Source of the DNA: Megaustenia siamemsis
Taxonomy: Eukaryota > Mollusca > Gastropoda > Stylommatophora > Ariophantidae
Assembly: GCA_032433765.1 (NCBI GenBank)
Contig: JAVIAB010000092.1
Span: 108,194,396 to 108,258,395 of the forward strand
DNA: 64,000 bases
Direction: 5' to 3'
In this document: piece by piece, positions 14,064 through 59,658 of the stretch
Layout: every line of letters begins with the position of its first letter
How positions within the stretch are numbered: the stretch's first letter is position 1
Notes under the pieces: generated by a model
What the model saw: only the letters and a program-made list of their open reading frames with translations
Databases searched by the model: none
Told to the model about the DNA's origin: nothing
Made by a program: the position numbers and the translations under genes

Positions 14064-14064
14064 T

Positions 14065-19440: not shown

Positions 19441-19525
19441 ACATATATTCTCCATTAACCTTCTTACTGCCACTTCCTTTCCGTCAGCTACCCCTCATAT
19501 TTTAACTTTACCCTTCATATTTAAT

Positions 19526-19786
19526 GGGAGCCGCGATAGCTTAGTGTTAGTGAACTGGACTACCACGGACAAGGGGTAGGGTTCGATCCCAACCGACGGC
19601 TTCCGGGTTCACCCAGCCTTAAATGGGTACCGGATTTTTTTCTGGGAAAATAAAGCAGCATCGGCGTAATACCGACCACATTACCCCAAAAATCATGTGT
19701 TGAAGGTCTGTAAAATATAGGGTCACTAACACCATATTTCCCTATACGCCACTTGGCGTGACGGGGGTACTTTACTTTTTTACTTA
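19526..19786 (+). mobile_element. SINE family S, full-length with 13-bp TSD
   Basis: Full copy: head GGGAGCCGCGATAGCTTAGT, B box GGTTCGATCCCA, body, conserved dyad CGCCACTTGGCG, 3' end CTTTACTTTTTTACTTA. Perfect flanking repeats CTTCATATTTAAT lie at 19513-19525 and 19787-19799. This gives exact boundaries for the family: about 261 bp with a short TTTACTTAC-type 3' end and no poly(A). Confidence 0.95.
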
Positions 19787-19977
19787 CTTCATATTTAATC
19801 ATTAGTACCAACTGGGAAAATCTACTTGCATAATAAGAGCACTAAATTGTGCCGTTTGAAATGTGCAGTTACATTAAGTGATAGTTCAGTTTCTTCCCCA
19901 CATTTTTTGCGACATTTTTAAACGCTCTCTGTCTAGAGCAGATTGTATTGTTTATTTGATTTGTTCGTGGCTTTACT

Positions 19978-20095
19978 AATCTTTTAGTGGATTTACTAAT
20001 CTGTTAGTGGCTTTACTAATCTGTTAGTGGCTTTACTAATCTGTTAGTGGCTTTACTAAATTGTTAGTGGCTTTATTTCTCTGTTAGTGGCCCCT
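19978..20095. repeat. 20-bp minisatellite, about 5-6 copies
   Basis: The unit is GGCTTTACTAATCTGTTAGT, with the first and last copies diverged. Confidence 0.9.
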
Positions 20096-20139
20096 TTCAA
20101 CACAACTAATGAAAATTCTCCAGGGCACTGCAGTCAGAG

Positions 20140-20748
20140 AGAAAGAGATAGATAGAGAGAGAGAGATACACGTGCACGCACGTACACACGCACTTACACT
20201 CACACAGTGATGTACGCACGCCACACATGCACTTACACGCGCCCAAAGACGCACTTACACGAACGAACGCACTTACGTTCACACAGATAAACACTTCCAC
20301 ACGCGCACTTACACTCGCGCTGAGACGCACTTACACGAACCCAGAGAAGAACATAAACGCAGGCGCGCACTTACACACACATAGAGACGGACTTAAATGA
20401 ATGCACACACTTACACGAAAGCAGAGACGTACAAACACGCACGCACTTGCACTGACGCAGAGACACATTTACACGAACGCATTCACGCAGAGACGCATAC
20501 AACAACGAAACCCAGAAAGGAGGTAAGGTTAGGAAGGGTGTCAAAGAGAGAGAGAGAGAGATACAGAGAGAGAGGGAGAGAGAGAGAAAGACAGAGATAA
20601 AGTATAAATGCACACGCATACACGCATGAATATACTTACACTCACGCAGAGAGGGACTTGTATGCAATGACAATCACGCAGAGATACTTTAAAAAACGTA
20701 ACTCAGAAAGAGAGGGTAGGGCAGGGAGGATCTCAAAGATTGAATGAC

Positions 20749-20793
<45 letters not shown>

Positions 20794-20800
20794 AAAAATG
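20140..20800. repeat. Low-complexity CA/GA region with (GA)n tracts
   Basis: Irregular repeats built on ACGCACTTACAC and GCAGAGACGCACTT, interrupted by (GA)n tracts at about 20541-20587 and 20749-20792. The open frames here are shadows of the repeat. Confidence 0.85.
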
Positions 20801-20829
20801 ATACTAATAGAATGTTCGTTGGTTCTTTG

Positions 20830-21335
20830 GTTATGGAAGGCCCCGGTATCACTGCAAACGAATCCATAATTGCTCAACCGCCTGTGCCAGTGGAATCATC
20901 CGAATTACTATCTCATCTCCCAAACAAAGAAAGGTAGCTGTAGTCACCGTCATAGCAGTCTCAGCATACGCCAAAAGACATAAGGCGAAACCGCACAGAA
21001 AGTGAACACAACCAACTGTTCCCTGTTTCGATATCATCATTCATCGTAAACAATTGGAATATCGAAACATGATCAAAACGGATGTAACACACAGCTCACG
21101 GTGTGCACAGAGCACCTAACTCAGTAGCTCCTGCAACAAGCCGGACTTGGAATATGAGGAAACTGCAACAAGGAACACTTTCATACATAGCCTTCAATGG
21201 TTCCTGTCGCCTATCCACCGTATTGACCGGAAGTTCATGTCCTCCTGAAAATGATGATCGTCATATTTTTAAAAAATGTATAGCACTTGATGATGTTAGG
21301 ACATTGTTTTTGACTCCAATTCCGAACCTATAAAA
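20830..21335 (+). repeat. Dispersed repeat family X, second copy
   Basis: Shares the CCCCGGTATCACTGCAAACG start, the GCCAGTGGAATCAT block, CACAGCTCACGGTGTGCACA and CCTTCAATGGTTCCTG with the 17050-17800 copy in opposite orientation. It is about 70-85 percent similar by eye and ends near CCTATAAAACACAG. Confidence 0.75.
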
Positions 21336-27856: not shown

Positions 27857-28339
27857 CGTGTAGTCACGATAGTTCAGTCGTTAGTGAACTGGACTACAAA
27901 GGACTAGAGGTCTGGTTCGATCCTGATCAACGGCATCCGGGTTCACCCAGCCTTAAATGGGTACCGGAATTTTTTCTGGGAAAGAAAATCGACACGGCCG
28001 TAATATCGACCCTATTACCCCAAAAATCATGTGCCGGAGGTCTGTAAAATGTTTGGTCACTAATACCATATTCAGGGTTCGATCCCAACCGACGGCTTCC
28101 GGATTCACCCAGCCTTAAATGAGTACTGGATTTTTTTCTGGGAAAGTAAATAAGCACGGGCGTAATACTGACCACATTACCCCAAAAATCATGTGCTGAA
28201 GGTCTGTAAAATATAGGGTCACTGACACCATATTTCCCTATACGCCACTTGGCGTGACGGGGCACTTTACTTTTTTTTTAAACTAATACCATATTCCCTA
28301 TACGCCAATTGGCGTGACGGGGGTACTTTACTTTACTTG
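27857..28339 (+). mobile_element. SINE family S, host copy split by a nested SINE
   Basis: The head is at about 27860 (GTAGTCACGATAGTTCAGTC), the body runs to 28072, and the 3' end resumes at 28296 (CCCTATACGCCAATTGGCG). The outer duplication TATAAGTATG lies at 27847-27856 and 28340-28349. The insert 28073-28281 is described separately. Confidence 0.9.
28073..28281 (+). mobile_element. Headless SINE nested inside a SINE, 14-bp TSD
   Basis: Starts in the B box (CAGGGTTCGATCCCAACC) and ends CACTTTACTTTTTTTTTAA. Perfect duplication ACTAATACCATATT at 28059-28072 and 28282-28295, within the 3' part of the host SINE. This shows that 5'-truncated copies lacking the A box can be integrated by the same machinery. 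Confidence 0.93.
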
Positions 28340-29445: not shown

Positions 29446-30082
29446 GATGCTTAAAAAATGCTGCAAACAAAACAAAACAGGATATGTCTTAAAATGTGTA
29501 ACTGTGGATCATTATCTTCATTATCATCACAATTGTTCTTCACCAACATCATGTTTTATTAAAGTTATTATCAGCACCATTATATCCCACATTGAACTTC
29601 TCACAAAGTATCAATCTATTTTCATTTTGGAAGAACTTTTTCTCATCCTAATTAAGTCACTACTTTTCTTATTTATTTCACTTTCTCCACTTCCTCTGTG
29701 TTTCCTGTTCTTCATAGACTCCAGAACAAAACCAGCGTACACATTTTTTAATGCAGTCTAATCAATATATATCTAATATCACCGCCGTCTCGCCATTAAT
29801 GCTGGCGTTTGTTTACTTTATATTCTATAGGTTTCTTATTATAGATTTAATCGTATTATCTGGATCCAATCCTTAACTTCATCGCCTGCTTTTGAAAGTC
29901 TGAATTTTCATTTCAGGAAATAATAGTGTAGTAATATTTAATTTAAAATTGGAATTTTATTGTATTTAACTGACGAGAAAGTTACATGCTTCTCCCAATT
30001 GAAATACCTCACATTACAAGCAGTAAAATGAAATGTAAGAAGAAGTAGTGCAACAATTTTATGGTGATTGCTCTTTTTATTA
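29446..30082. other. Intergenic, nothing recognised
   Basis: AT-rich; the open frame 29435-29761 is hydrophobic low complexity without a domain. Confidence 0.5.
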
Positions 30083-30337
30083 GGGAGCCGCGATAGCTCA
30101 GTGGTTAGTGAACTGGACTAACACGGACAAGGGGTAGGGTTCGATCCCAACAGACGGCTTCCGGGTTCACTCAGCCTTAAATGGGTACCGGATGTTTTCT
30201 GAGAAAGTAAAGCCACACGGGCGTAATACTGACCACATTACCCCAAAAAATCATGTGCTGAAGGTCTGTAAAATATAGGATAACTAATACCATATTTCCC
30301 TATACGCCACTTGGCGTGACGGGGATATTTTACTTAC
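30083..30337 (+). mobile_element. SINE family S, near full length
   Basis: Head GGGAGCCGCGATAGCTCAGT, B box GGTTCGATCCCA, dyad CGCCACTTGGCG, 3' end TATTTTACTTAC. Flanks TTTTTATTAG and TTTTTCATTAG suggest a slightly diverged duplication. It lies only about 90 bp outside the large palindrome. Confidence 0.93.
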
Positions 30338-30499
30338 TATTTTTCATTAGCATCAGCATTGTTTATCACTATCGTCACCATTATGTCTTTTTTTAAATGT
30401 CTGTATAGTTTCCAAAGCACTAAAACAACACGTAAGTAGTAGTATACAAGGAAGGATTTGGATATTATTTTGGCGTAAATTAACAAAGATATATAAGAG

Positions 30500-30725
30500 G
30501 CGCCTTTAGCGCCTAATGTACACGAGAGACAAGGGGAGTTAATCGGTCGTGCGACGGCGTGACCCCTCGTGCAGCGGGCGCCGGATCACGCGGGTGCGTG
30601 GTGACCTCGGGGCGGATCGCGTGTTGGAGGGGGGGTGACACCTTCAGATTAGCTCGAGTGTTTCGGACAGCGTGCTATCGGATCGGGGATTATCTCGGCT
30701 CGGTGGGACGCTATCGCGCCAGGTA
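30500..30725. repeat. GC-rich subterminal block of the palindrome
   Basis: A sharply GC-rich segment with a perfect short dyad GGCGCCTTTAGCGCC near 30499-30513 and blocks such as CGTGCGACGGCGTGACC. It is present in mirror form at about 40185-40420. It stands out from an AT-rich genome and could hold the element's terminal replication or protein-binding signals, but that is inference. Confidence 0.8.
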
Positions 30726-30867
30726 GCCGTTAGAAAATATTTATAGCTATGTAGTTGGGTGTCTGCTTAACGTTGTACCATAAATGAAGCATAAGGGTGA
30801 AACAGTTAGAGATTACTGGTTAGTCTAAGCTGGTAGTGTAAATATGTTCATCGGTGTTAGTGGTTCG

Positions 30868-31305
30868 CTCTCTCTCTCTCTCTCTTTCTCTCGCTCTCTC
30901 TCTCTCTCTCTCTACTATTCCAGCCTAGATTTCCCTCCATTGAAACACTTACTCATTCTCTCCATTTATCCATATCATCGCGCCTTCCTTCTCTCTCTCT
31001 CTCTCTCTCTCTCTCGCTTTCTCCCCTATCCTCTCTTAGACTTCTAACCTATCACTCCACCCTCCGCCTCTCTCTTTAGCTCCCCCGCCCTCCCTCATAT
31101 TTTTAGCGTCCCTCCTATTGTAACACTTGATTATTCTCACCATTAATACATAGCATCTCGCCTTCTTTCTCATAGGCTTCTCTCGCTCTCTCTCTCTCTC
31201 TCTCTCAGTTAGAGATTACTGGTTAGTCTTAGCTGGTAGTGTAAATATGTTCCTCGGTGTTAGTGGTTCGCTATCTCTCTCTCTCTCTCTCTCTCTCTCC
31301 CTCTT

Positions 31306-31348
<43 letters not shown>

Positions 31349-31611
31349 ACTATTCCAGCCTAGATTTCCCGCCATTGAAACACTTACTCATTCTCTCCAT
31401 TTATCCCTAGCATCGCGCCTTCCTTCTCTCTCTCTCTCTCTCTCTCTCGCTTTCTCCCCTATCCTCTCTTAGACTTCTAACCTATCACTCCACCCTCCGC
31501 CTCTCCCTTTAGCTCCCCCGCCCTCCCTCATATTTTTAGCGTCCCTCCTATTATAACACTTGATTATTCTCACCATTAATACATAGCATCTCGCCTTCTT
31601 TATCATACGCT

Positions 31612-31658
<47 letters not shown>

Positions 31659-31701
31659 CTTCTAACCCCTACTAGACTTCTCTCCTACCATTCCACCTTT
31701 C

Positions 31702-31748
<47 letters not shown>
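30868..31748. repeat. (CT)n microsatellites and duplicated ~400-bp segment, left arm
   Basis: A segment that starts GTTCATCGGTGTTAGTGG (30845) is repeated starting GTTCCTCGGTGTTAGTGG (31248), each followed by (CT)n, then TACTATTCCAGCCTAGATT. Two tandem copies of about 400 bp, each rich in (CT)n. Mirrored in the right arm at 39180-40070. Confidence 0.9.
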
Positions 31749-32540
31749 ACCTCGCCTAGCGTTCCGCCTTCATTCGTATTTTTACCTTACCACCAGTGTA
31801 ACACATTAATAACATTGAATATCAATTACAAAAAGACTTGAAATATCTACTTTTTAAAGAACCAATAAGATAAACATATGAAAAACGAAGGAATAATACA
31901 CTCGACAAGGCGTAACATACGTACTTTATACACATCACCCATTAATACAACTGAAATTCCTTTAATGATAACCTATCACATCGTTATGAGCTAAGAGAAA
32001 AACAGAAAAAAATTCAACTTACACCGTAAAATATTCCACTACAACACAGACCGCTAGACTGAACAGTACTACGAAAATAAACGTCCGTGAATCAAGCGCG
32101 CTTATAACACGAAGTCTCACATCCGACTAGTTTAAATATAATCTGGTAAATAAAATTTGGACGATACTATTCCACCCTCGACTAATATCTAGGTTAACCA
32201 ATCAGAGAAGAAGATTTCTATCGGACACCCATCAACGAAATGACTGACCTCTGGATTAACTAATCGGAGAAGAGGATTACTGTTATCGTGATAACTGACC
32301 TCATTTTCAACTTGAAGTGCTGTCGAGTCTGATGCATGGGTTACTTTAAATCGACCTAGCGGGTCAATGGTGGGGGAAATAATACAAGTGGCGGGTTACT
32401 TGAACGCGTTTTGACCCCTGCTGCAATACCAGAAGTTCCATGACAGTTATAAATAGTTGGATACAACAAGCAGGAAGTTATATTAAGGACAGAAATCTAG
32501 CAGGCAATGGCAGAAACCTAAGAGGCAAGGACAGAAAACT

Positions 32541-33215
32541 AGGGGGGTCGTGGTTCGTGGTTCGGTAAGTCCGTGATTCGTTAAGTCCGTGGTTCGTGGG
32601 GTTGTGGTTCGTGGTTCGTTAGTTGATGGTTCGTTAAGTCCATGGTTCGTAGGGGTTGTGGTTCGCGGTTCGTGAGTTGATGGTTCGTTAAGTTCGTGGT
32701 TTGTTAAGTTCGTTGTTCGTGAGTTTGCGGTTCGTTAGTTGATGATTCGTTAAGTCCGTGGTTCGTGGGGTTGTGGTTCGTGGTTCGTTAGTTGATGGTT
32801 CGTTAAGTCCGTGGTTCGTGGGGTTGTGGTTTGTGGTTCGTTAGTTGATGGTTCGTTAAGTTCGTGGTTCGTGGGGTTGTGGTTCGTGGTTCGTTAGCTG
32901 ATGGTTCGTTAAGTCCATGGTTCGTAGGGGTTGTGGTTCGCGGTTCGTGAGTTGAGGGTTCGTTAAGTCCGTGGTTCGTGGGGTTGTGGTTTGTGGTTCG
33001 TTAGTTGATGGTTCGTTAAGTTCGTGGTTCGTGGGGTTGTGGTTCGTGGTTCGTTAGCTGATGGTTCGTTAAGTCCATGGTTCGTAGGGGTTGTGGTTCG
33101 CGGTTCGTGAGTTGAGGGTTCGTTAAGTCCGTGGTTCGTGGTTTGTTAAGTTCGTTGTTCGTGAGTTTGTGGTTTATTAAGTTTGTAGTTTGTTAAGTGC
33201 GTGGTTCGAGAGGTC
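32541..33215. repeat. GGTTCGT-rich tandem array, left arm
   Basis: Built from GTGGTTCGTGGGGTTGTG, GTGGTTCGTTAGTTGATG and GTTCGTTAAGTCC in irregular alternation, period about 55-60 bp. A ~120-bp composite recurs (for example 32929-33050 and 33049-33140). Mirrored at 37725-38390. Confidence 0.92.
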
Positions 33216-33553
33216 GTGGGCAAGGGCAGAAACCTAAGAGGCAAGGGCAGAAACCTAGGAGGCAAGGTCAGAAACCTAGGAGGCAAGGGCAGAAACCTAG
33301 GAGGCAAGGGCAGAAACCTAAGAGGCAAAGACAGAAACCTAGGAGGCAAGGTCAGAAACCTAGGAGGCAAGGGCAGAAACCTAGGAAGCAAAGGCTGAAA
33401 AACACTCGTACTGACTAAGGCTTCCAAGGTGTATTTGATTGTCGCCCTATTTTTGTCTGTATAACCTAATATATCACTTTCATTTAATCTATCGATAAAC
33501 GTTTCAAAGTCATTTCTGTTGTTAACTAACAAGGGTTTGTCTAACCCTGTCAC
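33146..33553 (-). CDS. Unrecognised 135-aa ORF in left arm
   Basis: The minus strand from MTGLDKPLLV; the first ~47 residues (NRNDFETFIDRLNESDILGY and so on) look like an ordinary mixed protein sequence. The rest is a degenerate repeat of PRFLPLPP from the 21-bp array, ending in TTSRTTHLTNYKLNKPQT. The frame opens upstream of the Met for about 18 codons before a stop. It may be the remnant of an element gene whose end was overrun by repeats. No family recognised. Confidence 0.25.
   Translation of the reverse strand: MTGLDKPLLVNNRNDFETFIDRLNESDILGYTDKNRATIKYTLEALVSTSVFQPLLPRFLPLPPRFLTLPPRFLSLPLRFLPLPPRFLPLPPRFLTLPPRFLPLPLRFLPLPTTSRTTHLTNYKLNKPQTHEQRT
33218..33396. repeat. 21-bp array, left arm (about 8-9 copies)
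   Basis: The unit is GGCAAGGGCAGAAACCTAGGA (21 bp). It is shorter than the mirror array at 37511-37712, which has about one more unit, showing independent change in the arms. Confidence 0.93.
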
Positions 33554-33934
33554 GTTATTTGAGCTTGTGTGTGAAAGTAACGCAGCCCCTGTGTCTCTCT
33601 ATGTCTTAAAACTAGATGATGACTATAATTTTAGGTTACACAAATAACACGTGGATACTAAAAAAACCAACTTTTCGAAAATAGGTTACTAAAGTAACAT
33701 ACTATAACATTAAAGATCTAAGATAACACTTACTTTTATGTGTTTGAAGGTACGAGACACATCCATCGGCAACAACTGTAAGCGTATGTCTGATTACAAG
33801 CTTCTCAGATATATACACTTGAAACCCTAGAGGTGTTACTAAAAATAGAACTGACATCTGAGGCAATACCGGATGTGTTACTAAAAAGATTTTGACGTAT
33901 GATGGCAATTTTATGAGTTTACCCCCTTATCATT

Positions 33935-35243
33935 TTTTTTGAGGGTTACGCCCATGGAATCGATAAAAAGCGTTAATTTAGCACGCAGGCTTACCTAAAA
34001 CTTTATTTTAGACATCCCCACACCAAAAATTTACTTAAAAATCACTTTTGAAATTGTTACCCCCTTACCATTTTTTAGGGTTACGCCCATGGAATTGATA
34101 AAAAATTGAAATATAACCTCAAGGCATACCCCAAACTTTATTTTAGACATCCCCATAACAAAGATTTACATTAAAAACCACTTTTAGGATTTTACCCCCT
34201 TACCATTTTTTAGGGTTACGCCACTGAAATCGATAAAAATCGTAAATTTAGCACGTAGACTTACCTAAAACTTTATTTTAGACATCCCCACACCAAAAAT
34301 TAACTTAAAAATCACTTTTGAAATTGTAACCCCCCTTACCAATTTTGAGGGTTACGCCCCTGAAATCGATAAAAATCGTAAATTTAGCACGTAGGCTTAC
34401 CTAAAACTTTATTTTAGACATCCCCACTCCAAAAATTAACTTAAAAATCACTTTTGAAAATGTAACCCCCCCCCCCTTACCATTTTTTAGGGTTACGCCC
34501 CTGAAATCGATAAAAATCGTAATTTTAGCACATAGGCTTACTTAAAACTTTATTTTAGACATCCCCACACCAAAAATTAACTTAAAAATCAATTTTGAAA
34601 ATGTAACCCCCCTTACCATTTTTGAGGGTTACGCCCCTGAAATCGATAAAAAATTGAAATATAACCTCAAGGCATACCCCAAACATATTTTTTGACACCC
34701 CTACATATCAAACTCCATCAAAAAATCAACAAAAACTAGTAGTGGTATAGGGGTTTTTGAGCCGTTCATACTACGCAGATGCACGGTGCAGCACGTGCAA
34801 TCGATAAAAAAAATTGAAATATAACTGAAAGGCATACCCCAAACATAATATTTGACACCCCTACATATCAAACTCCATCAAAAAATCAACAAAAACTAGT
34901 AGTGGTATAGTGGTTTTTGAGCCGTTCATACTACGCAGATGCACGGTGCAGCACGTGCAATCGATAAAAAAATTGAAATATAACATCAAGGCATACCCCA
35001 AACATAATATTTGACACCCCTACATATCAAATTCCAACAAAAAAAACAACAACAAACTAGTAGTGGTAAGGGTTTTTGAGCCGTGAATACTACGCAGATG
35101 TACGGTGCAGCACGTGCAATCGATAAAAAAAATGAAATATAACCTCAAGGCATACCCCAAACATATTTTTTGACACCCCTACATATCAAATTTCAACAAA
35201 AAAACAACAACAAAAATAGTAGTAAGGAAGGGTGTTTTTGAGC
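33935..35243. repeat. ~115-157-bp tandem repeats next to the palindrome centre, left side
   Basis: Units of two kinds. Outer units (33935-34630) have GGGTTACGCC, ATCGATAAAAA and TTTATTTTAGACATCCCC. Inner units (34670-35243) have CATACCCCAAACAT, GACACCCCTACATATCAAA and ACTACGCAGATGCACGGTGC. The inner units continue partly into the loop. Confidence 0.9.
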
Positions 35244-35320
35244 CGTGCATACTACGCAGATGTATCGTGCTGCACAACGAGATTGTCCTGTACGATATCT
35301 TCACAAAATGTTCAATATTT
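35244..35320. other. Loop at the palindrome centre (~77 bp)
   Basis: Unpaired sequence between the arms. Its left part is a further degenerate piece of the inner repeat (GCATACTACGCAGATGTATC), so the repeat array of one arm ran into the centre before the turn-around. The pairing axis is near 35282, set by AGTAAGGAAGGGTGTTTT (35221-35238) against its complement at 35325-35342. Confidence 0.9.
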
Positions 35321-36517
35321 GCTCAAAACACCCTTCCTTACTACTATTTTTGTTGTTGTTTTTTTGTTGAAATTTGATATGTAGGGGTGTCAAAAAATAT
35401 GTTTGGGGTATGCCTTGAGGTTATATTTCATTTTTTTTATCGATTGCACGTGCTGCACCGTACATCTGCGTAGTATTCACGGCTCAAAAACCCTTACCAC
35501 TACTAGTTTGTTGTTGTTTTTTTTGTTGGAATTTGATATGTAGGGGTGTCAAATATTATGTTTGGGGTATGCCTTGATGTTATATTTCAATTTTTTTATC
35601 GATTGCACGTGCTGCACCGTGCATCTGCGTAGTATGAACGGCTCAAAAACCACTATACCACTACTAGTTTTTGTTGATTTTTTGATGGAGTTTGATATGT
35701 AGGGGTGTCAAAAAATATGTTTAGGGTATGCCTTGCAGTTATATTTCAATTTTTTATCGATTTCAGGGGCGTAACCCTCAAAAATGGTAAGGGGGGTTAC
35801 ATTTTCAAAATTGATTTTTAAGTTAATTTTTGGTGTGGGGATGTCTAAAATAAAGTTTTAAGTAAGCCTATGTGCTAAAATTACGATTTTTATCGATTTC
35901 AGGGGCGTAACCCTAAAAAATGGTAAGGGGGGGGGGGTTACATTTTCAAAAGTGATTTTTAAGTTAATTTTTGGTGTGGGGATGTCTAAAATAAAGTTTT
36001 AGGTAAGCCTACGTGCTAAATTTACGATTTTTATCGATTTCAGGGGCGTAACCCTCAAAAATGGTAAGGGGGGTTACAATTTCAAAAGTGATTTTTAAGT
36101 TAATTTTTGGTGTGGGGATGTCTAAAATAAAGTTTTAGGTAAGTCTACGTGCTAAATTTACGATTTTTATCGATTTCAGGGCGTAACCCTCAAAAATGGT
36201 AAGGGGGTTACAATTTCAAAAGTGATTTTTAAGTTAATTTTTGGTGTAGGGATGTCTAAAATAAAGTTTTAGGTAAGTCTACGTGCTAAATTTACGATTT
36301 TTATCGATTTCAGTGGCGTAACCCTAAAAAATGGTAAGGGGGTAAAATCCTAAAAGTGGTTTTAATTGTAAATCTTTGTTATGGGGATGTCTAAAATAAA
36401 GTTTGGGGTATGCCTTGAGGTTATATTTCAATTTTTTATCAATTCCATGGGCGTAACCCTAAAAAATGGTAAGGGGGTAACAATTTCAAAAGTGATTTTT
36501 AAGTAAATTTTTGGTGT

Positions 36518-36768
36518 AAGTAAAGTACCCCCCGTCACGCCAAGTGGCGTATAGGGAAATATGGTGTTAGTGACCCTATATTTTACAGACCTTCAGCACA
36601 TGATTTTTGGGGTAATGTGGTCGGTATTACGCCCGTGCTGTTTTACTTTCCCAGAAAAAATCCGGTACCCATTTAAGGCTGGGTGAACCCGGAGCCGTCG
36701 GTTGGGATCGAACCCTACCCCTTGTCCGTAGTAGTCCAGTTCACTAACCACTGAGCTATCGCGGCTCC
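36518..36768 (-). mobile_element. SINE family S inside the right arm
   Basis: A full family S body on the minus strand: 3' end at 36518 (complement of TACTTTACTTAC), dyad CGCCAAGTGGCG, and head at 36761-36768 (GCGGCTCC, complement of GGAGCCGC). Together with 36769-36877 it forms one insert flanked by AAATTTTTGGTGT at 36505-36517 and 36878-36890. Confidence 0.95.
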
Positions 36769-36877
36769 TACTAATTTTTAGGGAATTAGTAAAACCCAGG
36801 TGTCCTCGCCAGGGTACGAACCCCGGCTGTTGCCGTGGTAAGCCAACCGCCTATCGATTGCGCTAACCGGACATCAT
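36769..36877 (-). mobile_element. Second tRNA-like module, upstream half of a composite SINE insert
   Basis: On the minus strand GTCCGGTTAGCGCAATCG (A-box region, near 36870) and GGTTCGTACCC (B box, 36812-36822) form a tRNA-like head of a family different from S. A short linker with ACTAATT and AATTAGT follows. Both modules lie within a single 13-bp duplication, so they inserted as one unit or as a template-switched hybrid. Confidence 0.8.
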
Positions 36878-37355
36878 AAATTTTTGGTGTGGGGATGTCT
36901 AAAATAAAGTTTTAGGTAAGCCTGCGTGCTAAATTAACGCTTTTTATCGATTCCATGGGCGTAACCCTAAAAAAAATGATAAGGGGGTAAACTCATAAAA
37001 TTGCCATCATACGTCAAAATCTTTTTAGTAACACATCCGGTATTGCCTCAGATGTCAGTTCTATTTTTAGTAACACCTCTAGGGTTTCAAGTGTATATAT
37101 CTGAGAAGCTTGTAATCAGACATACGCTTACAGTTGTTGCCGATGGATGTGTCTCGTACCTTCAAAAACATAAAAGTAAGTGTTATCTTAGATCTTTAAT
37201 GTTATAGTATGTTACTTTAGTAACCTATTTTCGAAAAGTTGGTTTTTTTAGTATCCACGTGTTATTTGTGTAACCTAAAATTATAGTCATCATCTAGTTT
37301 TAAGACATAGAGAGACACAGGGACTGCGTTACTTTCACACACAAGCTCAAATAAC

Positions 37356-37784
37356 GTGACAGGGTTAGACAAACCCTTGTTAGTTAACAACAGAAATGAC
37401 TTTGAAACGTTTATCGATAGATTAAATGAAAGTGATATATTAGGTTATACAGACAAAAATAGGGCGACAATCAAATACACCTTGGAAGCCTTAGTCAGTA
37501 CGAGTGTTTTTCAGCCTTTGCTTCCTAGGTTTCTGACCTTGCCTCCTAGGTTTCTGTCTTTGCCTCTTAGGTTTCTGCCCTTGCCTCCTCGGTTTCTGCC
37601 CTTGCCTCCTAGGTTTCTGACCTTGCCTCCTAGGTTTCTGCCCTTGCCTCCTAGGTTTCTGACCTTGCCTCCTAGGTTTCTGCCCTTGCCTCTTAGGTTT
37701 CTGCCCTTGCCCACGACCTCTCGAACCACGCACTTAACAAACTACAAACTTAATAAACCACAAACTCACGAACAACGAACTTAA
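37356..37784 (+). CDS. Unrecognised 142-aa ORF in right arm
   Basis: Mirror of 33146-33553: the same MTGLDKPLLV start and N-terminal 47 residues, one more PRFL-type heptapeptide, and the same C-terminus. Conservation between arms reflects recent duplication or gene conversion and not necessarily selection. Confidence 0.25.
   Translation: MTGLDKPLLVNNRNDFETFIDRLNESDILGYTDKNRATIKYTLEALVSTSVFQPLLPRFLTLPPRFLSLPLRFLPLPPRFLPLPPRFLTLPPRFLPLPPRFLTLPPRFLPLPLRFLPLPTTSRTTHLTNYKLNKPQTHEQRT
37511..37712. repeat. 21-bp array, right arm
   Basis: Mirror of 33218-33396 with about one additional unit. Confidence 0.9.
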
Positions 37785-38390
37785 CAAACCACGAACCACG
37801 GACTTACCGAACCCTCAACTCACGAACCGCGAACCACAACCCCTACGAACCATGGACTTAACGAACCATCAGCTAACGAACCACGAACCACAACCCCACG
37901 AACCACGAACTTAACGAACCATCAACTAACGAACCACAAACCACAACCCCACGAACCACGGACTTAACGAACCCTCAACTCACGAATCGCGAACCACAAC
38001 CCCTACGAACCATGGACTTAACGAACCATCAGCTAACGAACCACGAACCACAACCCCACGAACCACGAACTTAACGAACCATCAACTAACGAACCACAAA
38101 CCACAACCCCACGAACCACGGACTTAACGAACCATCAACTAACGAACCACGAACCACAACCACACGAACCACGGACTTAACGAATCATCAACTAACGAAC
38201 CGCAAACTCACGAACAACGAACTTAACAAACCACGAACTTAACGAACCATCAACTCACGAACCGCGAACCACAACCCCTACGAACCATGGACTTAACGAA
38301 CCATCAACTAACGAACCACGAACCACAACCCCACGAACCACGGACTTAACGAATCACGGACTTACCGAACCACGAACCACGACCCCCCTA
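37725..38390. repeat. CGAACCA-rich tandem array, right arm
   Basis: Mirror of 32541-33215. Unit order is the same with minor substitutions. Confidence 0.92.
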
Positions 38391-39178
38391 GTTTTCTGTC
38401 CTTGCCTCTTAGGTTTCTGCCATTGCCTGCTAGATTTCTGTCCTTAATATAACTTCCTGCTTGTTGTATCCAACTATTTATAACTGTCATGGAACTCCTG
38501 GTATTGCAGCAGGGGTCAAAACGCGTTCAAGTAACCCGCCACTTGTATTATTTCCCCCACCATTGACCCGCTAGGTCGATTTAAAGTAACCCATGCATCA
38601 GACTCGACAGCACTTCAAGTTGAAAATGAGGTCAGTTATCACGATAACAGTAATCCTCTTCTCCGATTAGTTAATCCAGAGGTCAGTCATTTCGTTGATG
38701 GGTGTCCGATAGAAATCTTCTTCTCTGATTGGTTAACCTAGATATTAGTCGAGGGTGGAATAGTATCGTCCAATTTTATTTACCAGATTATATTTAAACT
38801 AGTCGGATGTGAGACTTCGTGTTATAAGCGCGCTTGATTCACGGACGTTTATTTTCGTAGTACTGTTCAGTCTAGCGGTCTGTGTTGTAGTGGAATATTT
38901 TACGGTGTAAGTTGAATTTTTTTCTGTTTTTCTCTTAGCTCATAACGATGTGATAGGTTATCATTAAAGGAATTTCAGTTGTATTAATGGGTGATGTGTA
39001 TAAAGTACGTATGTTACGCCTTGTCGAGTGTATTATTCCTTCGTTTTTCATATGTTTATCTTATTGGTTCTTTAAAAAGTAGATATTTCAAGTCTTTTTG
39101 TAATTGATATTCAATGTTATTAATGTGTTACACTGGTGGTAAGGTAAAAATACGAATGAAGGCGGAACGCTAGGCGAG

Positions 39179-39179
<1 letters not shown>

Positions 39180-39216
<37 letters not shown>

Positions 39217-39262
39217 GAAAGGTGGAATGGTAGGAGAGAAGTCTAGTAGGGGTTAGAAGAGC

Positions 39263-39302
<40 letters not shown>

Positions 39303-39565
39303 AGCGTATGATAAAGAAGGCGAGATGCTATGTTTTAATGGTGAGAATAATCAAGTGTTATAATAGGAGGGACGCTAAAAATATGAGGGAGGGCGGGGGA
39401 ACTAAAGGGAGAGGCGGAGGGTGGAGTGATAGGTTAGAAGTCTAAGAGAGGATAGGGGAGAAAGCGAGAGAGAGAGAGAGAGAGAGAGAAGGAAGGCGCG
39501 ATGCTAGGGATAAATGGAGAGAATGAGTAAGTGTTTCAATGGCGGGAAATCTAGGCTGGAATAGT

Positions 39566-39616
<51 letters not shown>

Positions 39617-40019
39617 AAGAGGGAGAGAGAGAGAGAGATAGCGAACCACTAACACCGAGGAACATATTTACACTACCAGCTAAGACTAACCAGTAATCTC
39701 TAACTGAGAGAGAGAGAGAGAGAGAGAGCGAGAGAAGCCTATGAGAAAGAAGGCGAGATGCTATGTATTAATGGTGAGAATAATCAAGTGTTACAATAGG
39801 AGGGACGCTAAAAATATGAGGGAGGGCGGGGGAGCTAAAGAGAGAGGCGGAGGGTGGAGTGATAGGTTAGAAGTCTAAGAGAGGATAGGGGAGAAAGCGA
39901 GAGGGAGAGAGAGAGAGAGAAGGAAGGCGCGATGATATGGATAAATGGAGAGAATGAGTAAGTGTTTCAATGGAGGGAAATCTAGGCTGGAATAGTAGAG
40001 AGAGAGAGAGAGAGAGAGC

Positions 40020-40050
<31 letters not shown>

Positions 40051-40070
40051 CGAACCACTAACACCGAGGA
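39180..40070. repeat. (GA)n microsatellites and duplicated segment, right arm
   Basis: Mirror of the (CT)n region of the left arm, with differences in tract length (for example around 39565-39640). Confidence 0.9.
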
Positions 40071-40484
40071 ACATATTTACACTACCAGCTTAGACTAACC
40101 AGTAATCTCTAACTGTTTCACCCTTATGCTTCATTTATGGTACAACGTTAAGCAGACACCCAACTACATAGCTATAAATATTTTCTAACGGCTACCTGGC
40201 GCGATAGCGTCCCCCGAGCCGAGATAATCCCCGATCCGATAGCACGCTGTCCGAAACACTCGAGCTAATCTGAAGGTGTCACCCCCCTCCAACACGCGAT
40301 CCGCCCCGAGGTCACCACGCACCCGCGTGATCCGGCGCCCGCTGCACGAGGGGTCACGCCGTCGCACGACCGATTAACTCCCCTTGTCTCTCGTGTACAT
40401 TAGGCGCTAAAGGCGCCTCTTATATATCTTTGTTAATTTACGCCAAAATAATATCCAAATCCTTCCTTGTATACTACTCACGTA

Positions 40485-42739: not shown

Positions 42740-45700
42740 AACCAACTCTAAAACTTCCCTCCTATTTTCCCACTTTCCTTCTATTCTCCAAGTCCCATCC
42801 TATTCTCCGAAGATCCCCCCTATTCTTCAACTTCTCTCCTATTATTCAACTTCCCCCCCCCTATTCTCTAACTTCCCCCTATTCTCCAACTTTCCTACTA
42901 TTCTCTAACTTCTCCCCTAAACTCCAAGCCCCCCCCCTATTCCCCAACTTCCCTCATATTCCCCAACTTCCCTTCTATTCAACAACTTACCTCCTATTCA
43001 CCAACTTCCCCCCTATTCTCCAACTTCCCCCCTATTCTACAACTTCCCCCCTATTCTCCAACTTCCCCCCTATTCTACAACTTCCCCCTACTCTCCAACT
43101 TCCCCCTACTCTCCAACTTCCCCCCTATTCTCCAACTTCCCCCCTATTTCTCCAACTTCCCCCCTATTCTCCAACTTCCCCCCCCTCTTTTCTCCAACTT
43201 CCCCCTTATTCTCCAACTTCCCCCCTATTCTACAACTTCCCCCCCTCTTTTCTCCAACTTCCCCCTATTCTACAACTTCCCCCCCCCCTCTCTTTTCTCC
43301 AACTTCCCCCCTATTCTCCCACTTCCCCCCTATTCTCCAACTTCCTCCCCTATTCTCCAACTTCCCCCTATTCTCCAACTTCCCCCCTATTCTACAACTT
43401 CCCCCCCCTCTTTTCTCCAACTTCCCCCCTATTCTACAACTTCCCCCCCTCTTTTCTCCAACTTCCCCCCTATTCTCCCACTTCCCTCCTATTCTACAAC
43501 TTCCCTCCTATTCTCCAACTTCCCCTCCTATTCTCCAACTTCCCCCCTATTCTCCTACTTCCCCTCTATTCTCCAACTTCCCCCCTATTCTCCAACTTCC
43601 CCCTATTCTCCAACTTCCCCGCTATTCTCCAACTTCCCTCCTATTCTCCAACTTCCCCCCTATTCTCCAACTTCCCCCCCTCTTTTCTCCAACTTCCCCC
43701 CTATTCTTAAACTTCCCCCTATTCCCCAACTTCCCCCCTATTCTCCAACTTCCCCCCTATTCTCCAACTTCCCCCCTATTCTCCAACTTCCCCCCTATTC
43801 TCCAACTTCCCCCCTATTCTCCAACTTCCCCCCTATTCTCCAACTTCCCCCCTATTCTCCAACTTCCCTCCTATTCTCCAACTTCACCCCTATTCTCCAA
43901 CTTTCCCCTCCCTCTTTTCTCCAACTTCCCCCCTATTCTCCCACTTCCCCCCTATTCTCCAACTTCCTCCCCTATTCTACAACTTCCCTCCTATTCTCCA
44001 ACTTCCCCCCTATTCTCCAACTTCCCCCCCCCTCTTTTCTCCAACTTCCCCCCTATTCTCCCACTTCCCCCCTATTCTCCAACTTCCTCCCCTATTCTAC
44101 AACTTCCCCCCTATTCTCCCATTTCCCCCTATTCTCCAACTTCCCCCCCCCCTCTTTTCTCCAACTTCCCCCCTATTCTCCCACTTAACCCCTATTCTCC
44201 AACTTCCCCCCTATTCTACAGCTTCCCCCTATTCTCCAACTTCCCCCCTATTCTCCAACTTCCCCCCTATTCTCCAACTTCCCCCCCCCCTCTTTTCTCC
44301 AACTTCCCCCCTATTCTCCAACTTCCTCCCCTATTCTCCAACTTCCCCCCTATTCTACAACTTCCCTCCTATTCTCCAACTTCCCCCTATTCTCCAACTC
44401 CCCCCCCCCTCTTTTCTCCAACTTCCCCCCTATTCTCCAACTTCCTCCCCTATTCTCCCACTTCCCCCCCCCTCTTTTCTCCAACTTCCCTCCTATTCTC
44501 CAACTTCCTCCCCTATTCTCCAACTTCCCCCCTATTCTCCAACTTCCTCCCTTATTCTCCCACTTCCCCCCTATTCTCCAACTTCCCCCCCCTCTTTTCT
44601 CCAACTTCCCTCCTATTCTCCAACTTCCCCCCTATTCTCCAACTTCCTCCCCTATTCTCCAACTTCCCCCCTATTCTCCAACTTCCCACCTATTCTCCAA
44701 CTTCCTCCCCTATTCTCCAACTTCCCCCCTATTCTCCAAATTCCCCCCTATTCTCCAACTTCCTCCCTATTCTCCAACTTCCCCCCTATTCTCCAACTCC
44801 CCCCCCTTTTTCTCCAACTTCCCTCCTATTCTCCAACTTCCCCCCCTATTCCCCAACTTCCCCCCTATTCTCCAACTTCCCCCCTATTCTCCCACTTCCC
44901 CCCTATTCTCCAACTTCCTCCCCTATTCTCCAACTTCCCCCCTATTCTCCAACTTCCCCCCTATTCTACAACTTCCCCCCCTCTTTTCTCCAACTTCCCC
45001 CCTATTCTACAACTTCCCCCCCTCTTTTCTCCAACTTCCCCCCTATTCTCCCACTTCCCTCCTATTCTACAACTTCCCTCCTATTCTCCAACTTCCCCCC
45101 TATTCTCCAACTTCCCCCCTATTCTCCTACTTCCCCTCTATTCTCCAACTTCCCCCCTATTCTCCAACTTCCCCCCTATTCTCCAACTTCCCCCCTATTC
45201 TCCAACTTCCCTCCTATTCTCCAACTTCCCCCTATTCTCCAACTTCCCCCCCCCCTCTTTTCTCCAACTTCCCCCCTATTCTCCAACTTCCCCCTATTCC
45301 CCAACTTCCCCCCTATTCTCCAACTTCCCCCCTATTCTCCAACTTCCCCCCTATTCTCCAACTTCCCCCCTATTCTCCAACTTCCCCCTATTCTCCAACT
45401 TCCCCCCTATTCTCCAACTTCCCCCCTATTCTCCAACTTCCCTCCTATTCTCCAACTTCCCCCCTTATCTCCAACTTCCCCCCCTCTTTTCTCCAACTTC
45501 CCCCTATTCTCCCACTTCCCCCCTATTCTCCAACTTCCTCCCCTATTCTACAACTTCCCTCCTATTCTCCAACTTCCCCCCTATTCTCCAACTTCCCCCC
45601 CCTCTTTTCTCCAACTTCCCCCCTATTCTCCCACTTCCCCCCTATTCTCCAACTTCCTCCCCTATTCTACAACTTCCCCCCTATTCTCCCATTTCCCCCC

Positions 45701-48700
45701 TATTCTCCAACTTCCCCCCCTCTTTTCTCCAACTTCCCCCCTATTCTCCCACTTAACCCCTATTCTCCAACTTCCCCCTATTCTACAGCTTCCCCCCTAT
45801 TCTCCAACTTCCCCCCTATTCTCCAACTTCCCCCCTATTCTCCAACTTCCCCCCCCCCTTTTCTCCAACTTCCCCCCTATTCTCCAACTTCCTCCCCTAT
45901 TCTCCAACTTCCCCCCTATTCTACAATTTCCCTCCTATTCTCCAACTTCCCCCCTATTCTCCAACTCTCCCCCCCCCTCTTTTCTCCAACTTACCCCCTA
46001 TTCTCCAACTTCCTCCCCTATTCTCTAACTTCCCCCCCTCTTTTCTCCAACTTCCCCCCTATTCTCCCACTTCCCCCCTATTCTCCAACTTCCCCCCTAT
46101 TCTACAACTTCCCCCCTATTCTCCAACTCCCCACCTATTCTCCAACTTCCCCCTACTCTCCAACTTCCCCCCTATTCTCCAACTCCCCCCCCCTCTTTTC
46201 TCCAACTTCCCTCCTATTCTCCAACTTCCTCCCCTATTCTCCAACTTCCCCCCTATTCTCCAACTTCCTCCCCTATTCTCCCACTTCCCCCCTATTCTCC
46301 AACTTGCCCCCCCCTCTTTTCTCCAACTTCCCTCCTATTCTCCAACTTCCCCCTATTCTCCAACTTCCTCCCCTATTCTCCAACTTCCCCCCTATTCTCC
46401 AACTTCCCCCCTATTCTCCAACTTCCTCCCCTATTCTCCAACTTCCCCCCTATTCTCCAACTTCCCCCCTATTCTCCAACTTCCCCCCTATTCTCCAACT
46501 TCCTCCCTATTCTCCAACTTCCCCCCTATTCTCCAACTCCCCCCCCCTCTTTTCTCCAACTTCCCTCCTATTCTCCAACTTCCCCCCCCTATTCCCCAAC
46601 TTGCCCCCTATTCTCCAACTTCCCCCCTATTCTCCAACTTCCCCCCTATTCTCCAACTTTCCCCCCTCTTTTCTCCAACTTCCCTCCTATTCTCCAACTT
46701 CCTCCCCTATTCTCCAACTTCCCTCCTATTCTCCAACTTCCCCCCTATTCTCCAACTTCCCCCCTCTTTTCTCCAACTTCCCCCCTATTCTCCCACTTCC
46801 CCCCTATTCTCCAACTTCCCCCCTATTCTCCAACTTCCCCCACCCCCTCTTTTCTCCAACTTCTCCCTTATTCTCCCACTTCCCCCCTATTCTCCAACTT
46901 CCTCCCCTATTCTACAACTTCCCTCCTATTCTCCAACTTCCCCCCCTATTCTCCAACTTCCCCCCCCCTCTTTTCTCCAACTTCCCCCCTATTCTCCCAC
47001 TTCCCCCTATTCTCCAACTTCCCCCCTATTCTACAACTTCCCCTCTTTTCTCCAACTTCCCTCCTATTCTCCAACTTCCTCCCCTATTCTCCAACTTCCC
47101 CCCTATTCTCCAACTTCCCCCTATTCTCCAACTTCCCCCCTATTCTCCAACTTCCCTCCTATTCTCCAACTTCCTCCCCTATTCTCCAACTTTCACATTG
47201 TTTTGTAACTTCCCCATATTCTCCACCCCCCCCTATTCGTAAACTTCCCTCCTATTCTCCAACTTCCCTCCTATTCTCCAACTTCCCTCCTATTCTCCAA
47301 CTTCCCTCCTATTCTCCAACTTCCCTCCTATTCTTCAACTTCCCTCCTATTCTCCAACTTCCCTCCTATTCTCCAACTTTCCTCCTATTCTCCAACTTCC
47401 CTCCTATTCTCCAACTTCCCTCCTATTCTCCAACTTCCCTCCTATTCTCCAACTTCCCTCCTATTCTCCAACTTCCCTCCTATTCTCCAACTTCCCTCCT
47501 ATTCTTCAACTTACCTCCTATTCTCCAACTTCCCTCCTATTCTCCAACTTCCCTCCTATTCTCCAACTTCCCTCCTATTCTCCAACTTCCCTCCTATTCT
47601 TCAACTTCCCTCCTATTCTCCAACTTCCCTCCTATTCTCCAACTTCCCTCCTATTCTCCAACTTCCCTCCTATTCTCCAACTTCCCCCCTATTCTCCCAC
47701 TTCCCCCCTATTCTCCAACTTCCCCCCTATTCTACAACTTCCCCTCTTTTCTCCAACTTCCCTCTTATTCTCCAACTTCCTCCCCTATTCCCCAACTTCC
47801 CCCTATTCCCCAACTTCCCCCCTATTCTCCAATTTCACTCCTATTCTCCAACTTCCCTCCTATTCTCCAACTTCCCCCCCCCCTCTTTTCTCCAGCTTCC
47901 CTCCTATTCTCCAACTTCCTCCCCTATTCTCCAACTTCCCCCCCCTCTTTACTCCAACTTCCCTCCTATTCTCCAACTTCCTCCCCTATTCTCCAACTTC
48001 CCCCCTATTCTCCAACTTCCCCCCTATTCTCCAACTTCCCCCCTATTCTCCAACTTCCCTCCTATTCTCCAACTTCCTCCCCTATTCTCCAACTTTCACA
48101 TTGTTTTGTAACTTCCCCATATTCTCCACCCCCCCCCTATTCGTAAACTTCCCTCCTATTCTCCAACTTCCCTCCTATTCTCCAACTTCCCTCCTATTCT
48201 CCAACTTCCCTCCTATTCTCCAACTTCCCTCCTATTCTTCAACTTCCCTCCTATTCTCCAACTTCCCTCCTATTCTCCAACTTCCCTCCTATTCTCCAAC
48301 TTCCCTCCTATTCTCCAACTTCCCTCCTATTCTTCAACTTCCCTCCTATTCTTCAACTTCCCTCCTATTCTCCAACTTCCCTCCTATTCTCCAACTTCCC
48401 TCCTATTCTCCAACTTCCCTCCTATTCTTCAACTTCCCTCCTATTCTTCAACTTCCCTCCTATTCTACAACTTCCCCCTATTCCCCAACTTCCCCCCTAT
48501 TCCCCAACTTCCCCCTATTCTCCAACTTCCCCCTATTCCCCAACTTCCCCCTATTCTACAACTTCCCCCTATTCCCCAACTTCCCCCTATTCCCCAACTT
48601 CCCCCCTATTCTCCAACTTCCCCCTATTCCCCAACTTCCCCCCTATTCTCCAACTTCCCCCTATTCCCCAACTTCCCCCTATTCCCCAACTTCCCCCTAT

Positions 48701-50370
48701 TCCCCAACTTCCCCCTATTCCCCAACTTCCCTCTATTCTCCAACTTCCCCTATTCCCCAACTTCCCCCTATTCTCCAACTTCCCCCTATTCCCCAACTTC
48801 CCCCTATTCCCCAACTTCCCCCCTATTCTCCAACTTCCCCCTATTCCCCAACTTCCCCCTTTTCCCCAACTTCCCCCTATTCCCCAACTTCCCTCCTATT
48901 CTCCAACTTCCCCCTATTCCCCAACTTCCCCCTATTCCCCAACTTCCCTCCTATTCTCCAACTTCCCCCTATTCCCCAACTTCCCCCTATTCCCCAACTT
49001 CCCCCCTATTCCCCAACTTCCCCCTATTCTCCAACTTCCCCCTATTCCCCAACTTCCCCCTATATCTCCAACTTCCCCCTATTCCCCAACTTCCCCCTAT
49101 TCCCCAACTTCCCCCTATTCTCCAACTTCCCCCTATTCCCCAACTTCCCCCTATTCCCCAACTTCCCCCTATTCCCCAACTTCCCTCCTATTCTCCAACT
49201 TCCCCCTATTCCCCAACTTCCCCCTATTCCCCAACTTCCCTCCTATTCCCCAACTTCCCCCTATTCCCCAACTTCCCCCCTATTCCCCAACTTCCCCCTA
49301 TTCTCCAACTTCCCCCTATTCCCCAACTTCCCCCTATTCTACAACTTCCCCCTATTCTCCAACTTCCCCCTATTCCCCAACTTCCCCCTATTCCCCAACT
49401 TCCCTCCTATTCTCCAACTTCCCCCTATTCCCCAACTTCCCTCCTATTCTCCAACTTCCCTCCTATTCTCCAACTTCCCTCCTATTCTCCAACTTCCCCC
49501 TATTCTCCAACTTCCCTCCTATTCTCCAACTTCCCCCTATTCTCCAACTTCCCTCCTATTCTCCAACTTCCCACTATTCTCCAACTTCCCTCCTATTCTC
49601 CAACTTCCCTCATATTCTCCAACTTCCCTCCTATTCTCCAACTTCCCTCCTATTCCCCAACTTCCCCCTATTCCCCAACTTCCCTCCTATTCTCCAACTT
49701 CCCTCCTATTCTCCAACTTCCCTCCTATTCTCCAACTTCCCTCCTATTCCCCAACTTCCCCCTATTCTCCAACTTCCCTCCTATTCTCCAACTTCCCTCC
49801 TATTCTCCAACTTCCCTCCTATTCCCCAACTTCCCCCTATTCCCCAACTTCCCTCCTATTCTCCAACTTCCCTCCTATTCTCCAACTTCCCCCTATTCCC
49901 CAACTTCCCCCTATTCCCCAACTTCCCTCCTATTCTCCAAATTCCCCCTATTCCCCAACTTCCCCCCTATTCCCCAACTTCCCTCCTATTCTCCAACTTC
50001 CCCCTATTCCCCAACTTCCCCCTATTCTACAACTTCCCCCTATTCTCCAACTTCCCCCTATTCCCCAACTTCCCCCTATTCCCCAACTTCCCTCCTATTC
50101 TCCAACTTCCCTCCTATTCTCCAACTTCCCTCCTATTCTCCAACTTCCCCCTATTCTCCAACTTCCCCCTATTCCCCAACTTCCCCCCTATTCTACAACT
50201 TCCTCCTATCTCCAACTCCTTTCATATTCTCAAATTTCCCTCCTATTCTCCAACTTTTCCCCTATTCTCCGAAGCTCCTTCATTTTCTTCAACTTTCACC
50301 CTATTTTTCAACTTCCCCCTATTCTCCACCCCCCCCCCCCAATTCTCCAGCTTCCCCCCTATTCTCCAAA
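42740..50370. repeat. Giant 20-bp polypyrimidine satellite, ~7.6 kb
   Basis: About 380 copies of a unit around CTATTCTCCAACTTCCCCC. Unit variants form domains: C-rich with CCCCCCTCTTTT inserts (43.1-47.1 kb), homogeneous CTATTCTCCAACTTCCCTC (47.24-47.68 and 48.15-48.47 kb), and CCCTATTCCCCAACTTCC (48.5-50.1 kb). One strand is nearly pure pyrimidine throughout. The 312- and 764-codon open frames (46304-47242, 48101-50395) are satellite shadows. Confidence 0.97.
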
Positions 50371-55796: not shown

Positions 55797-55829
55797 CACT
55801 TCTCAATAGCATGACAAAAATTGAAGTCA

Positions 55830-59397: not shown

Positions 59398-59408
59398 CAA
59401 TATTAGGA

Positions 59409-59647: not shown

Positions 59648-59658
59648 ATATGTTCATC

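What the first reader, a model, noticed from the sequence alone, without database searches (positions are those of the whole stretch)
30435..40478. 10-kb near-perfect palindrome with Polinton-type ends and 6-bp duplication but no Polinton genes
The arms (4.8 and 5.2 kb) leave only ~77 bp unpaired. The ends read AGTAGT... and ...ACTACT, with CACGTA directly repeated outside (30429-30434, 40479-40484). Established: Polinton/Maverick elements make 6-bp duplications, end in AG/CT, and use a protein-primed polymerase. Inference: this may be a snap-back derivative in which one end of a Polinton-like element was copied back on itself during protein-primed replication, giving a non-autonomous element that is all terminal repeat. 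I know of no description of such a derivative.
Basis: partly seen in the sequence, partly recalled or inferred. Interest (0 to 1): 0.92.

Follow-up and report, generated by a model that had tools for sequence, protein, structure and literature searches.

The report
Gene-less palindrome with Polinton-type ends
In what is likely a snail or slug genome, a 10-kb insertion is an almost perfect DNA palindrome in which no gene could be recognised, yet its ends and the 6-base repeat around it match those of Maverick/Polinton virus-like transposons, so it is probably a gene-less derivative made when such an element was copied back on itself and then inserted.

Summary
Arms 30435-35243 and 35321-40478 leave 77 bases unpaired; single-copy arm sequence differs at 4 of 1,645 positions. 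CACGTA flanks both ends, which read (AGT)3 and (ACT)2: the commonest published Maverick end motif, (AGT)2//(ACT)2, with one extra triplet on the left. Of 74 AGTAGT...ACTACT pairs within 20 kb only this one has equal 6-bp flanks. An assembly fold-back is unlikely: the flanks are not copies of each other, and only the right arm carries a 360-bp repeat with its own 13-bp duplication.

About a third of each arm is single-copy; the rest is tandem arrays (21, 53, 136, 159 bp) and microsatellite. Scanned ORFs match no Pfam family. The architecture is that of a foldback element; ends and duplication are Polinton-type, while the three foldbacks checked duplicate 7-10 bp. Most likely it is a non-autonomous foldback derivative moved by a Polinton integrase in trans. 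The snap-back step fits the one-sided loop and the extra triplet but is not shown; conversion between terminal repeats would give the same product. Other copies or a polB-bearing relative could not be sought: the genome search did not complete (13 tries). New variant of a known kind, provisional.

The parts
30429..30434 (+). left copy of the 6-bp target-site duplication CACGTA
   Evidence: sequence; control scans
30435..35243 (+). left arm of the palindrome (4,809 bp)
30435..30443 (+). left terminus (AGT)3; one AGT triplet more than the right end
   Evidence: 3-base gap at the terminus in the arm alignment
30435..30860 (+). single-copy outer end of the left arm
32544..33182 (+). 53-bp tandem array, left arm
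   Evidence: lies in a stretch of 1,248 bp matched without gaps by the right arm (I1)
33219..33400 (+). 21-bp tandem array, left arm
33936..34652 (+). 136-bp tandem array, left arm
34641..35262 (+). 159-bp tandem array, left arm, running about 20 bp into the central loop
35244..35320 (.). unpaired centre (77 bp): the first 21 bases match the left arm's 159-bp array by BLAST, 32 by direct comparison; the last 45 are not array-like
35321..40478 (-). right arm (5,158 bp), reverse complement of the left arm
36505..36517 (+). left copy of the 13-bp duplication AAATTTTTGGTGT around the inserted repeat
36518..36877 (-). 360-bp SINE-like repeat (tRNA-like by eye; ARAGORN and Rfam report nothing) inserted in the right arm only, after the palindrome formed
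   Evidence: 373-base gap in left arm; copies of its first 258 bp elsewhere in the window
36878..36890 (+). right copy of the 13-bp duplication
37356..37784 (+). longest ORF of the right arm (142 aa from GTG; mirrored at 33146-33553 -, 135 aa); no relative found; its second half is translated 21-bp repeats
40473..40478 (+). right terminus (ACT)2
40479..40484 (+). right copy of the target-site duplication CACGTA

Best explanation
This 10,044-bp insertion is a foldback-like element, all inverted repeat and without a recognised gene, whose (AGT)n...(ACT)2 ends and 6-bp flanking repeat match those of Maverick/Polinton elements, and it was likely inserted by a Polinton integrase supplied in trans. 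Shown: palindromic arms, 77-bp loop, end motif, 6-bp direct repeat, arrays in the arms, flanks that are not copies of each other, a later insertion in one arm. Inferred: the palindrome probably arose on the linear replicating form, when a strand displaced during protein-primed synthesis broke or stalled just past the 159-bp array, folded on a short complementary stretch (TTTTGAGC / GCTCAAAA at the loop's edges) and was copied back to its own end. That would yield a molecule with the same end twice, both usable for terminal-protein priming and by the integrase. The one-triplet difference between the ends would follow from jumping-back on the AGT repeat. The parent was probably already non-autonomous.
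For: Ends and duplication; published motif (AGT)2//(ACT)2 with 6-bp duplications, and its proposed role in jumping-back (PMC8097293). 6 bp is given for Polinton, 4 or 5 for Ginger, 6 for IS3EU but with TA..TA ends (PMC10045372). Only this one of 74 AGTAGT...ACTACT pairs has equal 6-bp flanks; control over all 6-mers. The loop goes on as the left arm's array (32 of 36 bases from GAGC on agree with the nearest unit) while the right arm's side does not, so one arm looks like the template. Low single-copy divergence, 4 of 1,645, and 1,248 bp with the 53-bp array matched without gaps at 99% mean one recent copying event or recent homogenisation. No inverted pair joins the two flanks in a self-comparison, so the palindrome stops at the element ends. 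Mavericks are reported in all genomes of a mollusc survey (PMC10294476, passage), and the best named relatives of a protein in the window are gastropod. [quoted passage not shown]
Against: No copy or polB/integrase-bearing relative with these ends is known; it could not be sought in the genome and two end-derived patterns had no match in viral contigs. ORFs scanned over the 4.8 kb behind the end show no Polinton gene, whereas intact vertebrate Mavericks are 12.7-24.6 kb with repeats of 46-1,447 bp. The end motif is documented for vertebrates; I did not check it for molluscs. The T-runs beside the loop differ (5 against 4), so the fold-back complementarity is short and not clean. The terminal-triplet difference could be slippage after insertion. 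One locus only.
Confidence: 0.45

Rival explanations
1. A Polinton-ended element was inserted first and became palindromic in place: after a break inside it, the right end was repaired by copying from the left terminal repeat inward (gap repair or gene conversion), replacing the right half by an inverted copy of the left half.
For: Gives the same exact ends, duplication, differing flanks and one-sided loop. The Galileo paper proposes this route (TIR1-F1-F1-TIR2) and says expansion of Polinton inverted repeats has been reported (PMC3573991, passage; the works it cites were not read).
Against: Needs one 4.8-kb tract ending within 77 bp of the end of its template; the longest Galileo repeats in that paper are 1.26 kb. 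Does not by itself account for the extra terminal triplet.
Confidence: 0.27
2. An ordinary foldback element of a cut-and-paste superfamily (Mutator, P or another), whose 6-bp duplication and AGT ends resemble Polinton ends by accident.
For: Architecture (outer single-copy part, tandem arrays, almost no middle) is that of foldbacks such as Tetris and Galileo.
Against: Tetris duplicates 8-10 bp, Tm1 mostly 9 (8-10 in 45 of 53 elements), Galileo 7. A 7-bp reading (CACGTAA) is possible on the letters but leaves ends that are not inverted copies. From memory, the end motif fits none of those families.
Confidence: 0.22
3. Assembly or read artefact (a fold-back read joined into the assembly).
For: Near-perfect inverted duplications are a known artefact of long reads (recalled). 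Reads could not be examined.
Against: The flanks are not inverted copies yet share a 6-bp repeat, one arm alone carries an insertion with its own 13-bp duplication, and three arrays differ by one unit between the arms.
Confidence: 0.03

Closest known systems
Maverick/Polinton elements (PMC8097293: section 7 and passages read)
   Same: Ends (AGT)2//(ACT)2, 6-bp target duplication, inverted terminal repeats
   Different: No recognised polB, integrase, ATPase, protease or capsid gene; 10 kb; inverted repeats of 4.8-5.2 kb instead of 46-1,447 bp, almost meeting at the centre; one extra AGT on the left
Foldback elements Tetris, Galileo, Tm1 (PMC4079207, PMC3573991, PMC3169594; passages read)
   Same: Long inverted repeats with internal tandem arrays, little or no middle, often non-coding
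   Different: They duplicate 7 to 10 bp and are assigned to the P or Mutator superfamilies; longest Galileo repeats 1.26 kb
Palindromic or hairpin deletion derivatives of protein-primed linear DNAs: kalilo plasmid derivative (title seen in the reference list of PMC11071308); yeast pGKL1 derivatives and adenovirus symmetric recombinants (recalled)
   Same: One end of a protein-primed linear molecule present twice, inverted (recalled for the latter two, inferred from the title for the first)
   Different: Those are free replicons; this one is integrated in a chromosome with a target duplication
IS3EU / GingerRoot (PMC10045372, passages read)
   Same: 6-bp duplication
   Different: Ends TA..TA (GingerRoot occasionally TG..CA)

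Membership tests
Maverick/Polinton | 6-bp target-site duplication | tested here: met
   CACGTA on both sides
Maverick/Polinton | end motif (AGT)2//(ACT)2 (commonest type in vertebrates) | tested here: met
   (AGT)3 left, (ACT)2 right; motif; not checked for molluscs
Maverick/Polinton | encodes protein-primed PolB and retroviral-type integrase | tested here: not met
   0 Pfam matches in 20 ORF translations of the palindrome
Maverick/Polinton | size 12.7-24.6 kb and terminal repeats 46-1,447 bp (intact vertebrate elements) | tested here: not met
   10,044 bp; arms 4.8 and 5.2 kb; ranges
Maverick/Polinton | autonomous relative sharing the terminal repeat in the same genome | not testable with these tools
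   genome search unanswered in 13 tries
Foldback element (architecture) | long inverted repeats with internal tandem repeats and a minimal middle | tested here: met
Mutator or P foldbacks | target duplication of 8-10 bp (Mutator type) or 7 bp (Galileo) | tested here: not met
   6 bp; no 7-9 bp match with inverted ends and paired arms. A 7-bp reading breaks the symmetry of the ends, which that scan requires
Mutator or P foldbacks | mobilised by the matching transposase | not testable with these tools
   no genome access
Snap-back derivative of a protein-primed molecule | same end twice around a loop that continues one arm only | tested here: met
   the in-place conversion rival expects the same
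Snap-back derivative of a protein-primed molecule | exists as a free protein-capped linear molecule | not testable with these tools
   needs DNA from the animal

The most novel reading that the evidence does not exclude
A defective, all-terminal-repeat palindromic genome made by snap-back during protein-primed replication of an animal Polinton, which kept both ends competent for priming and integration and so became a gene-less parasite of its parent that inserts into chromosomes: an integrated counterpart of the palindromic defective genomes of adenoviruses and linear plasmids.
Probability: 0.3. Interest if true: 0.8.

Novelty: new variant of a known kind. Interest (0 to 1): 0.55.

Why it matters
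How Polintons replicate is inferred from their sequences (to my knowledge). An integrated palindrome whose two ends differ by one AGT triplet would be a fossil of strand displacement, snap-back and jumping-back in these elements, and would join two classes kept apart so far, foldback elements and self-synthesising transposons. It predicts gene-less Polinton parasites that annotation based on polB and integrase would miss.

Tried and rejected
Pfam on ORFs of the palindrome: no match (1 of its 8 proteins; 10; 10). Relatives of the 142-aa ORF: 10 candidates, none at E<=1, in the protein database; none in viral contigs (54 pattern matches, none confirmed); one weak PDB match at E 1.3. Two exact end-derived DNA patterns in viral contigs: 0 matches each; weak evidence, since that is a collection of viral contigs from which the window's own genome may be left out. 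Polinton genes in the flanks: none among 27 further ORF translations (7, 10, 10; one ORF was given twice); one search counts 119 ORFs of at least 70 aa mostly outside arrays, so most were not scanned. ATR13, Exonuc_VII_S, Spectrin_5, Flu_PB2 and phage-tail matches were set aside as repeats or chance. tRNA and Rfam scans: 0. The borders of three other large inverted repeats in the window were looked at: none ends in AGTAGT.

Control that looks unfavourable at first: 92 pairs with equal 6-bp flanks and paired arms (60 printed); most of those printed are self-complementary 6-mers inside inverted repeats, and 2 pairs remain when self-complementary flanks are left out.

Literature: polinton+palindrom (44 papers, 25 listed), polinton+foldback (7 papers). 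I saw listings and the passages named, and section 7 of PMC8097293; so I do not claim that such a derivative is absent from print. The Galileo paper says that expansion of Polinton inverted repeats has been reported.
Full report
What is there. The window holds a 10,044-bp inverted duplication at 30435-40478. The left arm is 4,809 bp and the right arm 5,158 bp; 77 bp at the centre (35244-35320) are unpaired. Aligned with the cut at 35295/35296, which takes in some loop bases, 4,595 of 4,640 aligned bases agree. With the loop left out and another setting, the three single-copy stretches (30435-30860, 31780-32484, 33401-33920) differ at 4 of 1,645 bases and the rest at 100 of 3,104, part of which is ambiguity in arrays. 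The main length differences are a 360-bp repeat (36518-36877) with its own 13-bp duplication, present in the right arm only, and single-unit differences in the 21-, 136- and 159-bp arrays. A stretch of 1,248 bp that holds the 53-bp array is matched without gaps at 99%.

The inserted repeat looks like a tRNA-derived SINE by eye; ARAGORN and Rfam report nothing. Its first 258 bp or so recur in the window in 11 aligned pieces of 79-95% identity, which are also the only matches of the palindrome to the rest of the window. Its 13-bp duplication is intact in the right arm, and the left arm has the uninterrupted sequence, so it came after the palindrome.

Ends. CACGTA lies directly outside both ends. 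The left end reads (AGT)3, the right (ACT)2, so the outermost left triplet has no partner. Control: among inverted 6-mers 2-20 kb apart, 178 pairs had equal 6-bp flanks and 92 also had paired inner arms; 60 of the 92 were printed and nearly all are self-complementary 6-mers inside inverted repeats, which are equal by construction. Leaving out self-complementary flanks, 81 pairs had equal 6-bp flanks and 2 of those paired inner arms: this locus, and 55188/59571, which lies within the arms of another repeat and not at its border. With 7, 8 or 9 bp there were none. With 4 bp there were 4 (two in other repeats, two inside this palindrome) and with 5 bp 3 (all inside this palindrome). Of 74 AGTAGT...ACTACT pairs within 20 kb only this one has equal 6-bp flanks. 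On the letters a 7-bp repeat CACGTAA can also be read, but then the two ends are no longer inverted copies.

Why an artefact is unlikely. A fold-back read would put the same flank, inverted, on both sides, and no direct repeat. Here no inverted pair joins the flanks, they share one 6-mer, and one arm carries a later insertion. Reads could not be examined.

What it resembles. Vertebrate Mavericks have 6-bp duplications and end most often in (AGT)2//(ACT)2; the authors link the repetition to jumping-back in protein-primed replication (PMC8097293, section 7 and passages). I did not find or check the motif for molluscs. Another paper gives 6 bp for Polinton, 4 for Ginger1, 4 or 5 for Ginger2, 3-6 for LTR retroelements, and 6 for IS3EU, whose ends are TA..TA (PMC10045372, passages). 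Foldback elements, which share the architecture of long inverted repeats holding tandem arrays, duplicate 8-10 bp in Tetris, mostly 9 in Tm1 and 7 in Galileo. So it is built like a foldback and flanked like a Polinton. No Polinton gene was recognised: 20 ORF translations from the palindrome have no Pfam match, and the longest ORF has no relative in three searches. I therefore do not file it as a Polinton.

Host. A reverse transcriptase/GIY-YIG protein elsewhere in the window has 288 relatives, 120 listed. The best-scoring one is unnamed (45% identity); the best named ones are from Arion vulgaris (62%), Bradybaena similaris (56%) and Biomphalaria glabrata (51%), all gastropods, and lower ones from sharks, echinoderms, a coral and other snails. 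The host is probably a gastropod, perhaps a heterobranch; this rests on one mobile element. Mavericks are reported in all genomes of a mollusc survey that included five gastropods (PMC10294476, passages).

How it may have formed. The loop is one-sided: from GAGC on, 32 of 36 bases agree with the nearest unit of the left arm's 159-bp array (BLAST alignment to 35264), and the last 45 bases of the loop are not array-like; on the right side the array breaks off at the loop. At the loop's edges TTTTGAGC faces GCTCAAAA, with one more T on the left. A strand that ended there could have folded and been copied back to the terminus. Protein-primed replication by strand displacement would supply such strands, and deletion derivatives of protein-primed linear DNA with hairpin form exist: one of the kalilo plasmid is listed in the references of PMC11071308 (title only); yeast pGKL1 derivatives and adenovirus symmetric recombinants are recalled and were not found in the library. 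The product would keep two good ends and could be inserted by an integrase in trans. The rival is conversion in place: the Galileo paper describes copying one terminal repeat onto the other with inclusion of internal sequence and says expansion of Polinton inverted repeats has been reported. Both give exact ends, a duplication and a one-sided loop. I prefer the first because the tract reaches within 77 bp of the end of its template and because of the terminal triplet, but the preference is mild. The age of the event cannot be told, since homogenisation would hide it.

Limits. The decisive data, other copies and a polB-bearing relative, are missing: the search of the window's own assembly was unanswered 13 times. 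Exact patterns from the ends gave no match in viral contigs. This is one locus. A simple copy-back of a normal Polinton end is also strained by the lack of recognisable genes in 4.8 kb; the parent was probably already stripped and filled with arrays.

Noticed in passing
11494-14907: Inverted repeats of 843 aligned bp (99.3% identical) around an ORF on the minus strand (12856-14067) with weak RVT_1 and GIY-YIG matches, Penelope-like; best named relatives are gastropod proteins.
   Followed up: partly
42752-50369: 7.6-kb array of a 19-bp unit, about 396 copies, with almost no G on the plus strand (GC skew -0.98 to -1.0 in the 1-kb windows from 43001 to 50000).
   Followed up: no
55110-59649: Inverted repeats of about 252 bp that begin with ATC repeats and enclose a 2.6-kb array of a 31-bp unit; no clear target duplication at the borders. 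Trinucleotide-repeat ends again.
   Followed up: partly
36518-36877; related pieces at 30079-30337, 28074-28272, 19521-19777, 18579-18832 and others: SINE-like repeat: 11 aligned pieces (79-95% identity) in the rest of the window; one of them ends about 100 bp left of the palindrome.
   Followed up: partly
17283-21334: Another inverted repeat pair (518 aligned bp, 87%) whose borders show no obvious duplication.
   Followed up: no
37356-37550: First part of the 142-aa ORF reads like ordinary protein by eye before it runs into translated 21-bp repeats, but has no relative in the searches made.
   Followed up: yes
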